Positions 763 to 32,197 of a stretch of DNA of 39,849 nt are shown here, piece after piece (position 1 is the stretch's first letter; the number at the start of each line of letters is the position of its first letter). A program made the translations under genes and the position numbers. The notes under the pieces were generated by a model that saw only the letters and a program-made list of their open reading frames with translations, made no database searches and was not told where the DNA came from. This DNA comes from a virus, in IMG/VR virus record IMGVR_UViG_3300011271_000007, positions 1 through 39,849 of that record; one strand, 5' to 3'.

Positions 763-1499
763 AAAATCACTCTAATAGGCTTGTTGACAGGTTCATAATG
801 TTCGTTGACATGGCTACAGTTCACAATTATCGGTAAAGAACTTGGAGGATCTTCAGAGGGAACTATTCCTAACATTTTTTTCATTCTCGTACAATTTATC
901 ATTGCATATGCCTCATGAATATGACCAAAGACAAAAAGTTTCAATTGTTTTAACTTTCGTGATTTACGATATAACGAAATACTTCCACAAGTATGACCAT
1001 CTATATTTAAGTCCAAAACGCCATGTGGAGGTCCATGAGAGATCAATATGTCTATGTCTTCAGGGATTAGCGCAAACTTCTCGGCTAATTCATTTTCTGT
1101 GCCACACGTGAAAGCCTTGCAATGGGGATTCATGCCTTCAAATGTCTTCGTCCAAGGAGTGCCCCAGATTTTAAAATCTCTTCTTTCTAATGTTCCTTTA
1201 AAATCTTTTTTTAAAGGGGGATAATATGAAAATGCGGTTCCTGAGTCGCACAGATATATAACACTAACTTTTTCCCAATATTTCCACATTCTGTGTTCAT
1301 CCATGGATTGCAAAAAGTTGTCATGATTACCACCAATGATAATTTTTTCTTTATAAGATTGATCAAGAATCCAGCTTTCAAAATCTATCCAATTTTTCTC
1401 TGTGTCATTTGCAGTCAAATCACCTGCGACAATCAAAAGATCTCCTCCATCTAATTTGGGATAGAATCCATGAAGATCGCCTATACAAGTTATGTCCAT
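759..1499 (-). CDS. Calcineurin-like metallophosphoesterase
   Basis: The 246-residue protein carries the full metallophosphatase motif set in order: GDLHG near the N-terminus, AGDLT, GGNHD, SHGPP and GHIHE. These supply the Asp, His and Asn ligands for two metal ions. The family hydrolyses phosphomonoesters or phosphodiesters, sometimes cyclic nucleotides. Its substrate here is unknown. A start 15 bases further upstream is possible, but ATG at 1499 forms a TAATG junction with the HNH gene and places the first motif close to the N-terminus, as is usual. It is followed by an ATGA-coupled small gene. A cytoplasmic accessory function is likely. Confidence 0.85.
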   Translation of the reverse strand: MDITCIGDLHGFYPKLDGGDLLIVAGDLTANDTEKNWIDFESWILDQSYKEKIIIGGNHDNFLQSMDEHRMWKYWEKVSVIYLCDSGTAFSYYPPLKKDFKGTLERRDFKIWGTPWTKTFEGMNPHCKAFTCGTENELAEKFALIPEDIDILISHGPPHGVLDLNIDGHTCGSISLYRKSRKLKQLKLFVFGHIHEAYAMINCTRMKKMLGIVPSEDPPSSLPIIVNCSHVNEHYEPVNKPIRVIL

Positions 1500-2161
1500 T
1501 AGATATGCGTCCAATTTTTACGTTTTACAATAGCATAAATCATGGAGTGTGCCACTCCGTATTCTTTAGCAAGTTTTGGACCGTTAGTTTCAGGATATTT
1601 TGATCGAATTTCCAAAACTTGTTTTTCAGTAAGTTTTGATCGACCCGTTTTTTCACCTAAAGCTCTATTAAAGAATTTTAATTTCTTTGATCCATCTATA
1701 TGATTCCAACTTTTTCCTATTATTATATTTCTAATGACCGAAGCTGAAGTGTTATAAATTTTTGCCAATTCTACTGTGCTTTGTGTGGGATATGAATTTC
1801 GGATATTTAAAATTTCATTTTCTTTAAAAATAGATTGTTTATTATTTTCTCCGAATTTGAGTCTTTTTCGTTTAGAAGCATCTTGTATATTCTGAGATTG
1901 TGTTCCAATTTCAAGATGATCAATGTTACAGCAAGCACGATTATCACATTTGTGCCTTATTACGAATCCATCACGATAAAACCCATCCTTTAATGTGTTG
2001 TATAAGAGACGTGGAACACTGTAAGTAAAATCACATATGCTATAAACTCCATATCCAGCTCCACTTAATCCTTTCGGCCATATTTTACATCCATTCGCAT
2101 CTAAAGGAATTCCATCAATTAATTCCAGAAATTGAACTATGCAATTTTGTTTTTTAGGCAT
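1499..2161 (-). CDS. HNH homing-type endonuclease with two helix-turn-helix repeats
   Basis: The 220-residue protein has an HNH core of the HNH_3 type around residues 50-90: a conserved His in HKCDNRACCN, then the NIDHLEIGT segment. Two similar C-terminal repeats follow (about 105-155 and 170-220), each with a spaced helix-turn-helix and ending in a KSWNHI or KNWTHI signature, as in DNA-binding modules of phage homing endonucleases. The start ATG at 2161 has a GGGGAG ribosome binding site. It sits exactly at the 5' end of the phosphoesterase gene, its stop overlapping that gene's ATG, which suggests insertion as a mobile gene. A second stand-alone relative lies at 31712-32197. Confidence 0.85.
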   Translation of the reverse strand: MPKKQNCIVQFLELIDGIPLDANGCKIWPKGLSGAGYGVYSICDFTYSVPRLLYNTLKDGFYRDGFVIRHKCDNRACCNIDHLEIGTQSQNIQDASKRKRLKFGENNKQSIFKENEILNIRNSYPTQSTVELAKIYNTSASVIRNIIIGKSWNHIDGSKKLKFFNRALGEKTGRSKLTEKQVLEIRSKYPETNGPKLAKEYGVAHSMIYAIVKRKNWTHI

Positions 2162-11747: not shown

Positions 11748-12188
11748 ATGGCACCACCAAAAGGTCACCCAAATTATAACATTAATAATGAGGGCAGACC
11801 TAAAACATACACTAAACCTATTGTTGATCAATATGCATTAGATCTTATCGAATGGTCAAACAAAGATAGTAGTGTTTGGATTAAAGATTTTTGTTTAGAG
11901 CAAGATTTAGATCCAAATATAATGAGTGATTGGTCCAGAGAAAATAATAACTTTGCACTAGCGTACAATATCGCAAAACAAAAACAAGAATCAAGATTGT
12001 TTAAAGGCGCGTTAGATAATAAGTATAATAACAAAATAACTGTACTTTGTTTAACTAATCATCATGGGTGGGCGGATAAGAGCGAGACCCGAGTTAGTGG
12101 TGACTCACAAAACCCACTCACCATAGTTCTAGATAAGGTGGCAGGAAAAACTAAAGACATGATCGATGACGAAAGCGAAACAGAGTGA
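11748..12188 (+). CDS. terS: Terminase small subunit
   Basis: This 146-residue protein starts MAPPKGHPNYNINNEGRPK, a form common in phage DNA-packaging small subunits, then has a helix-turn-helix-like stretch (SSVWIKDFCLEQDLDPNIMSDWSRENNNFALAYNIAK) and LDNKYNNKITVLCLTNHHGWADK, which is the usual segment before the oligomerisation helix. It would recognise phage DNA and hand it to the large subunit. Its end overlaps the terminase large gene by 23 bases. A TTGTCA box with TAATGT 17 bases later (11695-11723) is a weak promoter candidate. Confidence 0.8.
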   Translation: MAPPKGHPNYNINNEGRPKTYTKPIVDQYALDLIEWSNKDSSVWIKDFCLEQDLDPNIMSDWSRENNNFALAYNIAKQKQESRLFKGALDNKYNNKITVLCLTNHHGWADKSETRVSGDSQNPLTIVLDKVAGKTKDMIDDESETE

Positions 12189-14511
12189 CATCGACAAGGC
12201 CGAAAAGCTCTTCGTCAATCCTACCTGGCGGCTGAACAATCTATATTATATTGTCGACAAGCGCGGCCATAAGATAAAATTCACTTTTAACTGGGCGCAA
12301 AAAGAGCTTTACGAAAGCCTTTGGTATTGTAATGTTATCCTTAAGGCGCGTCAGCTAGGTATTTCCACATTTATATGTCTACTGTTTTTAGACAGATGTT
12401 TATTTAATCCAAACATGAGTGCGGGCATTGTAGCACATACGGTTGAGGATGCCCAAGCTCTTTTTAGGCGTGTTAAGATAGCCTATGACTCATTGCCGGA
12501 TGAGATTAAGGCTATTATCACAGCCGAGAATGACACAGCTAATATGCTCAAATTCAGCAATGGTTCAAGCATTCGCATAGGCACGTCCTTGCGTTCTTCT
12601 ACATTCCAATATCTACATGTATCAGAATTCGGCAAGATCTGTGCCAAATACCCTGATAAGGCGCAAGAAATAGTCACAGGCTCTCTAAATACGGTTGCAG
12701 CAGGGCAATACGTATTCATCGAGTCTACAGCTGAGGGACGCTCTGGGCCGTTCTATGAGATATGCCAAGCAGCACAAAAGGCCAAGATGCTCAAGCGTGA
12801 ACTATCTAAGCTCGACTTCAAGTTTCATTTCTTCCCTTGGTGGAAGGAGCCGGAATATAGAATAGGCAATACTTTTCCTATCACGGGTAATATGGAGAAG
12901 TATTTCATGCACTTGGCTAACTTAGGAATTAATATAGATGAAGAGCAAAAAGCTTGGTACATAGCGCGAGAGACAACACAGCAAGATGATATGAGGCGAG
13001 AATATCCTAGCACGCCAGAGGAATCTTGGGAGGTCGCTCACGAAGGATTGTATTATAGTAGACAAATGAGCCAAGCCCGGGCAGAGAAGCGGGTTGGATT
13101 CGTTCCGTATGATGAAGATTATCCTGTTCATACAGCATGGGATCTAGGATTTAATGACAACACATGCATATGGTTTTTTCAGATCATAGGCAAAGAGATA
13201 CGACTTATAGACTATTGCGAGGGCGGAGACAGTCTACAACATTGGATAGGAGAGGTCAAGAAGCGCGAATATACGTATGACAAACATATAGCGCCTCATG
13301 ACATGATACAAACGGAATATGCGGCGGGTATCACCAGACAGCAGAGCGCAAGAAAGATGGGCATGAACTTTCAAATTGCTAAGAGGGCCGATGTTATTGT
13401 AGGAATTGACGCTGTGAGAACCATGCTTGCTAGATGCTGGTTCGATGAGCGCAAATGTGAAAAAGGGATAAAATGCCTCGACAACTACAAGAAAGACTGG
13501 GATGAGAAGAATGGTACATGGCGGAGCGGACCTTTGCACAACTGGGCTTCGCATGGATGTTTTACGGGAGATACATTGTTGTTGACGCGTTTCGGACGTT
13601 TACCCATAATGTTAATTGAGAAAGACATGGAAATATTGACATTAAAAGGTTGGAAGAAATGCAACAAAGCTATGGTGACCAAGAAAAATGCCCAGCTTGT
13701 GGAAGTCACATTCAAAGACGGTATGAAGGTGAAATGTACGCCGGATCATTTATTTTTAACGGAGAAAGGGTGGATATCAGCAGAAAACCTAGAGAGGAAT
13801 ATAGAGATCCGATCGTCCTTGATTCAATCACAACATATTTTAGAGGATCTTTATATAGAATCTGGCCGCAAGAAAGATATTTTAAAAAAGGTGGATCATA
13901 TTTGCATAGAGATGTTTGGAAGGATGCATTTGGTGAAATACCTAACGGATGTCATATTCACCATAAAGATGAAAATATTAAAAATAATTCACTGTCTAAC
14001 CTTGAATGTTTACCACCAGAAATTCATCTTAGATTCAAGCGGCCAAATTCAAAGGGTTTATCTAACAAAGCAAGAGAAAAAGCGAGCGAATGGCATAAAT
14101 CTGAAGAAGGAAGAGAATGGCATAGAAGACAAGCTATTCGATGCAAAAGTTGGACAAAGTGGAAAAGAGAAGAAAAAGGATGTCCTATATGCAACAAATT
14201 ATATCAAGCACTTGTTAGGAAAAACGGACATGCTCAAAAATATTGCTCTCCAAAATGTAAATCACTTGCGCGTTTTAGGCGTGAAAAGATTAAATGAAAC
14301 AGCAGATGTTTATTGTATAAGTGTTCCTGAAGTCTCACATTTTTCGTTAGCTAATGGCGCTGTCGTGCACAATTCTGATGCTATGAGAACTCTTGCAACT
14401 GGATTACATTTTATCGTGCCAACAGAGGGAATGAACCTTAACTCACAAATATTACAGCAAAAACAATATATGCAGTCTCGCTTTGATCCCTGCAAGCGTC
14501 ATGGGTTTTAA
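12166..14511 (+). CDS. terL: Terminase large subunit, ATPase-nuclease, interrupted by an intein
   Basis: The reading frame of 781 codons encodes the packaging motor. The ATPase has a Walker A variant KARQLGIST at about residues 60-68, a Walker B-like LHVSEFG near 150 and a coupling motif FIESTAEG near 185. The nuclease has WDLGFND (Asp about 326), VGIDAVRT (Asp about 415) and SDAMR (Asp 738) as likely metal ligands. Residues 465-736 are an intein, inserted between ASHG and SDAMR immediately before the final nuclease Asp. Excision would restore a 509-residue protein, normal for the family. The start ATG overlaps the small subunit gene. Confidence 0.92.
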   Translation: MTKAKQSDIDKAEKLFVNPTWRLNNLYYIVDKRGHKIKFTFNWAQKELYESLWYCNVILKARQLGISTFICLLFLDRCLFNPNMSAGIVAHTVEDAQALFRRVKIAYDSLPDEIKAIITAENDTANMLKFSNGSSIRIGTSLRSSTFQYLHVSEFGKICAKYPDKAQEIVTGSLNTVAAGQYVFIESTAEGRSGPFYEICQAAQKAKMLKRELSKLDFKFHFFPWWKEPEYRIGNTFPITGNMEKYFMHLANLGINIDEEQKAWYIARETTQQDDMRREYPSTPEESWEVAHEGLYYSRQMSQARAEKRVGFVPYDEDYPVHTAWDLGFNDNTCIWFFQIIGKEIRLIDYCEGGDSLQHWIGEVKKREYTYDKHIAPHDMIQTEYAAGITRQQSARKMGMNFQIAKRADVIVGIDAVRTMLARCWFDERKCEKGIKCLDNYKKDWDEKNGTWRSGPLHNWASHGCFTGDTLLLTRFGRLPIMLIEKDMEILTLKGWKKCNKAMVTKKNAQLVEVTFKDGMKVKCTPDHLFLTEKGWISAENLERNIEIRSSLIQSQHILEDLYIESGRKKDILKKVDHICIEMFGRMHLVKYLTDVIFTIKMKILKIIHCLTLNVYHQKFILDSSGQIQRVYLTKQEKKRANGINLKKEENGIEDKLFDAKVGQSGKEKKKDVLYATNYIKHLLGKTDMLKNIALQNVNHLRVLGVKRLNETADVYCISVPEVSHFSLANGAVVHNSDAMRTLATGLHFIVPTEGMNLNSQILQQKQYMQSRFDPCKRHGF
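13558..14373 (+). mobile_element. Intein in the terminase large subunit (272 aa)
   Basis: The intein begins with Cys465 in block A (CFTGDTLLLTRFGRLPIMLIE). Block B contains the TPDH motif (Thr and His) followed by LFLTEKGWISAENL. It ends with block F (VYCISVPEVSHFSLANG) and block G (VVHN), followed by Ser as the first C-extein residue. All splicing residues (Cys1, the TxxH pair, the penultimate His, Asn, Ser+1) are present. Between blocks B and F, about 150 residues in the intein frame look non-natural and Lys/Ile-rich. That DNA encodes an HNH endonuclease in another frame. Confidence 0.9.
13770..14297 (+). CDS. HNH homing endonuclease nested out of frame inside the intein
   Basis: In the frame two bases behind the intein frame lies a 175-codon gene from GTG at 13770, with GGAG five bases before it. 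The open frame extends to 13650, with ATG at 13734 as another start. It ends with TGA at 14295-14297. It has an HNH core: LHRDVWKDAFGEIPNGCHIHHKDEN, then NNSLSNLECLP. A phage-typical EWHKSEEGREWHRR repeat segment and a C-terminal zinc element CPIC...YCSPKC follow. These features match stand-alone phage HNH homing enzymes. It lies wholly within the intein and would be translated independently from terminase mRNA, presumably cutting intein-free terminase genes. Confidence 0.88.
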   Translation: MDISRKPREEYRDPIVLDSITTYFRGSLYRIWPQERYFKKGGSYLHRDVWKDAFGEIPNGCHIHHKDENIKNNSLSNLECLPPEIHLRFKRPNSKGLSNKAREKASEWHKSEEGREWHRRQAIRCKSWTKWKREEKGCPICNKLYQALVRKNGHAQKYCSPKCKSLARFRREKIK

Positions 14512-31711: not shown

Positions 31712-32197
31712 TTATATATGTCTCCATGTTTTTCGATTAATGATATAACTGATCGTAGAACTAGCTAGATTAAATATTTTACGCAAACGAGATTGATTCA
31801 AACCTTGAGAATATAATTTTCTTATTTTTAAAATAATTTCATCATTTAATTTTGCATGTCGATTTTTAATTCCTAGTGCTGGTTTTTTTCTGCCTCTTTG
31901 ACGCATTTGATCCATGTTGTCTTGTGGTGTACCAAGATGTAAATGCGCAGGATTGCAACACAAAGGAATGTCACAAGAATGTAAAACAAAAAAATCGCAA
32001 GGAATAACACCCTTCCAAAGAATATATGCTGCCCTATGGGATAAACATTTCTTTTTTGGTCCATTTATGGCAAGTGAAGTCAAGCCATATTGATTTCTTG
32101 GAGCACATTTATATCCTTGCCAAATCCAACATCCATTTTCATTAATTTTGCAGGTTCTGAATATTCTTTCTTTGGTTTTTTCAATGTAAGTTTTCAT
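31712..32197 (-). CDS. HNH endonuclease, homing type (161 aa)
   Basis: The protein has the HNH_3 layout: CWIWQGYKCAPRNQYGLTSL near the start, LSHRAAYILWKGVIPCDFFVLHSCDIPLCCNPAHLHLGTPQDNM as the catalytic core (His of SHR, HSCD and NPAHL), then a basic linker and a C-terminal helix-turn-helix ending in NRKTWRHI. It is related to the larger enzyme at 1499-2161, which has two such DNA-binding modules. It is inserted leftward inside the rightward virion operon and would be a mobile homing gene. Confidence 0.85.
   Translation of the reverse strand: MKTYIEKTKERIFRTCKINENGCWIWQGYKCAPRNQYGLTSLAINGPKKKCLSHRAAYILWKGVIPCDFFVLHSCDIPLCCNPAHLHLGTPQDNMDQMRQRGRKKPALGIKNRHAKLNDEIILKIRKLYSQGLNQSRLRKIFNLASSTISYIINRKTWRHI

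What the first reader, a model, noticed from the sequence alone, without database searches (positions are those of the whole stretch)
13558..14373. Complete HNH homing endonuclease gene nested out of frame inside a terminase intein
The terminase frame contains an intein with every splicing residue (Cys1, TPDH, His-Asn, Ser+1). Between its blocks B and F there is no in-frame endonuclease. Instead, a second frame holds an intact 175-codon HNH enzyme of the stand-alone phage type (LHRDV...HIHHKDEN...EWHKSEEG...YCSPKC) with its own GTG start, GGAG site and TGA stop. The terminase-intein frame must remain open across the same DNA for about 158 codons. At the local AT-richness a stop is expected roughly every 15 codons, so chance openness is on the order of 10^-4 or less by crude estimate. 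Both frames are therefore under selection. This looks like a free-standing homing gene that invaded a mini-intein and became an overlapping gene, separating endonuclease expression from splicing. Usual inteins carry the endonuclease as an in-frame domain. I do not recall an HNH gene nested this way, but literature must be checked.
Basis: partly seen in the sequence, partly recalled or inferred. Interest (0 to 1): 0.92.

Follow-up and report, generated by a model that had tools for sequence, protein, structure and literature searches.

The report
Out-of-frame endonuclease gene inside terminase intein
A phage DNA-packaging gene carries a self-splicing protein insert (an intein), and a complete DNA-cutting-enzyme gene is written in a shifted reading frame inside that insert; the layout is real, recurs in well over a hundred related phage sequences, and was noted once in print for Brucella phages but not worked out.

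Summary
TerL (12166-14511) contains an intein (13558-14373), and an intact HNH gene lies in the -1 frame inside it. It is no artefact: the first 89 relatives examined (86 IMG/VR loci, 3 isolates) share the layout; an intein-only search gave 79 of 80 nested plus one mini-intein with HNH remnants; a second HNH group gave 62 of 80 nested, 5 in the other frame.

Two corrections. (1) Selection is not symmetric. Over the HNH core only the HNH amino acids are constrained; the intein frame there is a disordered linker kept free of stops (0 stops in 62 nonredundant loci, 2.8 expected each). True dual coding is limited to about 37 codons (13659-13769). (2) The proposed GTG start is forced by the intein's Gly-Trp; the likely start is ATG 13659.

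Intein and HNH travel together across TerLs averaging 34% identity; the 80 closest TerLs are all intein-free; free-standing relatives often sit beside terL. Best reading: a homing element with an independently initiated HNH. Splicing and cleavage are inferred.

Prior art: brucellaphages (2015, one passage) and the ShiLan hidden HNH (2025, non-intein).

The parts
12166..14511 (+). terL ORF, 781-aa precursor; 509 aa after predicted splicing
   Evidence: (phrog_2 terminase large subunit 2.5e-30)
12166..13557 (+). N-extein of TerL
13558..14373 (+). intein, 272 codons (Cys1 to Asn272)
   Evidence: PF14890, TIGR01445, TIGR01443; HINT fold
13735..13749 (+). intein block B CTPDH; its Thr and Pro wobble bases also fix Ala-Gly of the HNH frame
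13825..14169 (+). linker residues 90-204 of the intein: disordered, conserved only in being open
14374..14508 (+). C-extein of TerL, begins with Ser+1
13659..14297 (+). nested HNH endonuclease gene, -1 frame, 212 aa from ATG (TTG 13650 and GTG 13770 are alternative starts), stop TGA 14295-14297
13644..13649 (+). AAAAGG, putative ribosome-binding site 9 nt before ATG 13659
   Evidence: sequence; an SD-ATG at this place in most relatives
13659..13769 (+). dual-coding stretch: CPxCG segment of HNH over the intein blocks up to B
13770..14294 (+). HNH core (HIHHKD, EWHxSEEG, C-terminal CxxC pair)

Best explanation
This is a mobile intein in the phage large terminase gene whose homing enzyme is a separate gene. 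A ribosome reading terL makes a 781-residue precursor; the HINT domain, split by a long disordered linker, splices itself out and leaves a 509-residue TerL. Another ribosome starts inside the same mRNA at an internal ATG (13659) in the -1 frame and makes a 212-residue HNH nuclease. That nuclease cuts intein-free terL alleles at or near the conserved HxWxSHG motif, so that repair copies intein and HNH gene together. Selection keeps the HNH sequence over the core, keeps the intein frame merely free of stops there, and constrains both proteins only over about 37 codons up to and around block B. Shown here: architecture, its conservation, the pattern of selection, shared inheritance of intein and HNH, patchy distribution. 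Inferred: splicing, separate translation, cleavage, homing.
For: Same nested layout in the first 86 IMG/VR loci and 3 isolates, in 79/80 intein-query loci and in 62/80 of a second HNH group. Stop avoidance: 0 stops in 62 loci; 0 of 149 Met followed by I/M/T/N/K against 17 of 41 in free-standing relatives. Codon-position switch between regions. Host 4-fold sites differ at 0.19 in the dual stretch against 0.63 in the N-extein. SD-ATG upstream. HNH and splicing domain co-vary (Spearman 0.56), HNH and extein hardly (0.20). The 80 nearest TerLs are empty. L223 is an HNH-deleted mini-intein with remnants of both HNH ends. HINT fold; I-HmuI as best structural match of the HNH (Z 6.3).
Against: No experiment shows splicing, HNH expression or cleavage. 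The HNH fold match is weak (Foldseek E 0.03). The window's own SD is modest and its start differs from the commonest one. TerL may simply diverge faster than the element, which would also lower the extein correlation.
Confidence: 0.78

Rival explanations
1. The nested HNH is a packaging accessory nuclease that works with TerL (as proposed for terminase-adjacent HNH proteins such as HK97 gp74), and its place in the intein is incidental or couples its dose to TerL.
For: All host genes sampled are TerL; free-standing relatives lie beside terL; PMC4422536 makes this argument for brucellaphages.
Against: The 80 nearest TerLs lack the element, and no relative of the nested HNH was found within the held flanks of the 12 closest; L223 has lost HNH but keeps the intein; best structural match is the homing enzyme I-HmuI.
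Confidence: 0.1
2. HNH starts at GTG 13770 (175 aa), and the upstream CPxCG reading is an unused by-product of intein code.
For: An NTG is kept at this place in most relatives.
Against: The NTG is forced by the intein Gly-Trp; an SD of 5 nt or more precedes it in 3% of loci against 66% for the upstream ATG; ACG in 62/62 and CCG in 58/58 loci; host 4-fold sites are constrained upstream of it; the CxxC is broken in the HNH-less L223.
Confidence: 0.1
3. HNH is reached by -1 ribosomal frameshifting from the TerL-intein frame, giving a TerL-intein-HNH fusion.
For: The -1 phase is by far the commonest.
Against: An ATG lies upstream in 59/62 loci, mostly with an SD, and -1-frame stops can lie directly before it; six loci are in the other phase; no slippery heptamer was seen by eye in the window.
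Confidence: 0.03
4. Two compensating indels (sequencing or assembly error) split a normal in-frame intein-HNH fusion.
For: None found.
Against: The same layout occurs in many separately assembled contigs and in isolate genomes, with no in-frame HNH seen, and codon-level selection matches the two frames as they stand.
Confidence: 0.005

Closest known systems
[quoted passage not shown]
   Same: Same layout in words: HNH gene out of frame in the middle of terL, ascribed to an intein.
   Different: A remark in a SNP comparison; the passages read contain no test of selection, start site or spread. Sequence homology to the window is untested because the records are not held.
ShiLan domain, hidden HNH in a phage DNA methylase (PMC11855218, 2025)
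   Same: Out-of-frame HNH inside an in-frame open insertion of a phage gene; GTG start proposed.
   Different: The host insertion is neither intein nor intron and is thought to stay in the protein; here a recognisable HINT domain surrounds the HNH.
Ordinary phage TerL inteins with an in-frame endonuclease domain (mycobacteriophages, PMC5050341)
   Same: Intein in TerL; splicing and endonuclease activity shown there for some.
   Different: Those are at other sites, in the ATPase domain, with the endonuclease in the intein's own frame; here HNH is a separate gene and the site lies near the TerL C-terminus.
Free-standing terL-adjacent HNH genes (Pseudomonas PAE1, Lactobacillus CL2, Salmonella PhiSTP1, Acinetobacter BP10)
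   Same: Homologous HNH with HIHHKD and WHxSEEGxxWH motifs.
   Different: Not nested; the frame that would correspond to the intein has stops.
I-HmuI, group I intron HNH homing endonuclease (PDB 1U3E)
   Same: Best structural match of the HNH model; enzyme carried by a splicing element.
   Different: Carried by an RNA intron, where no second frame must stay open; Rfam finds no intron here.

Membership tests
Class 1 intein | Cys1, block B TxxH, C-terminal His-Asn, nucleophile at +1 | tested here: met
   Cys1, TPDH, HN, Ser+1
Class 1 intein | HINT fold | tested here: met
   Model confident at both ends; Foldseek to Ssp DnaB mini-intein 1.1e-7
Class 1 intein | Autocatalytic protein splicing | not testable with these tools
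   Needs expression
HNH endonuclease (PF13392 HNH_3) | Profile match above the curated cutoff | tested here: met
   49.8 bits against a cutoff of 24.8
HNH endonuclease (PF13392 HNH_3) | Conserved catalytic His/Asn motif | tested here: met
   HIHHKD and NN..NLEC conserved in the alignment
Intein homing endonuclease | Endonuclease encoded in frame as an intein domain | tested here: not met
   HNH is in the -1 frame; linker unconserved in the intein frame
Intein homing endonuclease | Cleaves the intein-free allele | not testable with these tools
   Empty sites found; no assay
ShiLan-type hidden HNH insertion | Out-of-frame HNH in an insertion with no splicing domain | tested here: not met
   Out of frame, but inside a full splicing domain
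Brucellaphage terL intein with out-of-frame HNH | HNH gene out of frame within a terL intein | tested here: met
   Window has the layout; common descent with the brucellaphage element could not be tested

The most novel reading that the evidence does not exclude
The N-terminal CPxCG segment of the nested HNH was born by overprinting: the enzyme extended upstream into pre-existing splicing-domain code, so that one stretch now specifies both an intein catalytic block and a new part of the enzyme. The splicing domain must be the older of the two, and the segment was not seen in the free-standing or other nested HNH relatives examined. More broadly, out-of-frame nesting would be a common state of HNH genes in phage TerL inteins, reached more than once (two phases are seen).
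Probability: 0.5. Interest if true: 0.75.

Novelty: new variant of a known kind. Interest (0 to 1): 0.62.

Why it matters
It shows another way to marry a homing nuclease to a splicing element: neither an in-frame intein domain nor an intron ORF, but a separate gene written over the intein linker. That can uncouple nuclease dose from TerL dose and leaves the linker free to drift. It offers a large natural data set (over 500 loci) on how overlapping genes arise and are kept, shows that TerL annotations hide a nuclease gene, and makes the proposed path from free-standing endonuclease to mobile intein directly testable.

Tried and rejected
Sequencing artefact: rejected by conservation. Group I intron: no Rfam hit. 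In-frame HNH homologues: none seen in 80 intein-query loci; 16 loci that a motif pattern first scored as lacking HNH were read in the -1 frame, and 15 carry it (L261 is cut by the contig end), the last being L223. GTG 13770 as start: rejected because the intein Gly-Trp forces NTG. Brucellaphage records NC_019446, JN939331 and KC556897 are not held, so homology to the published case is untested. The CPxCG-type HNH was not found in isolate phages. The PDB fold search with the HNH model gave only I-HmuI as a credible match. Literature searches for 'different reading frame' and 'alternative reading frame' with intein returned nothing.

Full report
OBSERVATION. The terL ORF 12166-14511 encodes 781 residues. 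It contains an intein by Pfam PF14890, TIGR01445 and TIGR01443, bounded by Cys1 (13558) and His-Asn (ending 14373), with Ser at +1. In the -1 frame an HNH ORF runs to a TGA at 14295-14297; it scores 49.8 bits to PF13392 and 4e-26 to the phage HNH family phrog_15471. Nothing endonuclease-like is in the intein frame.

CHANCE OR ARTEFACT? A search with the 175-aa HNH found 8 loci, all with HNH in the same out-of-frame position inside an open terL-intein frame. A profile search gave 541 relatives, of which 80 were kept; all 86 IMG/VR loci in hand (not deduplicated; 62 of the main family remain at 97% identity) and three isolate phages (Acinetobacter Highwayman, Tetrasphaera TJE1, Rhodobacteraceae LS06) are nested in the same phase. 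Redrawing synonymous codons of the window's HNH core leaves the intein frame open with probability 0.004. In 62 nonredundant loci the intein frame has 0 stops (2.8 expected per locus) and the third frame 927. Nested HNHs never place I, M, T, N or K after Met, a pair that would force a stop in the host frame: 0 of 149 Met, against 17 of 41 in free-standing homologues.

WHICH FRAME IS SELECTED WHERE. Differences by host codon position 1/2/3 are .22/.16/.52 in the N-extein.12/.17/.20 over the HNH N-terminal segment.12/.46/.18 over the HNH core and .17/.13/.51 in the intein C-terminal part. In the core the fast position is the HNH wobble, so only the HNH protein is conserved there; the intein reading is a linker. 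The window against its closest relative L001 shows 23/15/71 differences at HNH positions 1/2/3. Over roughly 13659-13769 both proteins are constrained: host 4-fold sites differ at 0.19, against 0.63 in the N-extein and 0.64 in the intein C-terminus; intein sequence before the HNH start is intermediate at 0.41. The Thr and Pro of CTPDH are ACG in 62/62 and CCG in 58/58 loci, where TerL background usage is 34% and 40%; those wobble bases fix Ala-Gly in the HNH frame. The AlphaFold model agrees: both splicing halves are confident, residues 90-204 are below pLDDT 50, and Foldseek matches mini-inteins at 1e-7.

START SITE. 59 of 62 loci have an ATG 8-15 codons before the CxxC; a match of 5 or more nt to the SD precedes it in 66%, against 3% for the Gly-Trp NTG and 2% for random sites. 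In the window AAAAGG (13644-13649) lies 9 nt before ATG 13659. A caveat: in many relatives the SD overlaps the intein's Gly-Glu-Val codons, so part of the SD enrichment may come from the intein code.

MOBILITY. TerL N-exteins average 34% identity, HNH 58% and the splicing domain 62%; HNH and splicing domain correlate (Spearman 0.56), HNH and extein hardly (0.20); L053/L056 have 45% TerL but 79% HNH identity. The 80 TerLs closest to the window are all empty, the nearest (L118) at 75% identity, whereas the nearest intein-bearing TerL (L001) is at 66%. Insertions fall at a few neighbouring codon positions of the HxWxSHGADAFR motif. In the window the +1 residue is Ser, where six of the seven closest empty relatives have Ala.

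LIFE CYCLE. An intein-only query gave 80 loci: 79 carry the -1 HNH (one cut by its contig end), and L223 is a 127-aa mini-intein that keeps -1-frame remnants of both HNH ends, with the CxxC already broken. A second HNH group without the CPxCG segment is nested in 62 of 80 loci, 57 in the -1 and 5 in the +1 phase; the hosts examined are terminases. Genome contigs add nested cases from several bacterial phyla, among them one in the +1 phase (L105). Free-standing relatives commonly flank terL. The Acinetobacter phages Highwayman (nested) and BP10 (free) are sisters at 93/82 support, and the tree needs four nested/free changes, though one origin is not ruled out. This fits a terL-associated free-standing HNH that entered (or left) an intein.

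PRIOR ART. [quoted passage not shown] PMC11855218 describes an out-of-frame HNH in a non-splicing methylase insertion and discusses its translation. The layout is therefore not new to print. Its breadth, the codon-level demonstration, the start-site assignment, the dual-coding N-terminus and the deletion derivative appear to be, as far as the held open-access library shows; subscription papers could not be searched.

LIMITS. Splicing, separate translation, cleavage and homing are inferred. The loci are related, so combined probabilities are only indicative. Brucellaphage sequences were not held. Two conserved Cys make a zinc site plausible but do not show one.

Noticed in passing
window 1499-2161 (-): A separate HNH_3 endonuclease gene with a C-terminal Mor-like DNA-binding region.
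   Followed up: no
window 31712-32197 (-): A second free-standing HNH_3 gene, on the strand opposite to the structural genes around it.
   Followed up: no
L223:3001-3381: A 127-aa mini-intein of the same family with -1-frame remnants of both ends of a deleted HNH gene.
   Followed up: partly
L105, L323, L326, L330, L336, L345: HNH nested in the other (+1) frame of a TerL intein, suggesting separate nesting events.
   Followed up: partly
L210, L215, L216: The CPxCG of the dual-coding segment is replaced by a differently spaced Cys set (C..CRWC).
   Followed up: no
L338:871-4212: A 1114-aa terL ORF with two intein splicing stretches.
   Followed up: no
L087 and L090: Two Acinetobacter phages with sister HNH genes, one nested in the terL intein and one free-standing before terS: a good natural pair for testing how nesting arises.
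   Followed up: partly
L268:1828-4251 against phrog_30251 and phrog_35162: These PHROG profiles align through the linker reading of a nested HNH gene, so they may have been built from such host-frame translations.
   Followed up: no
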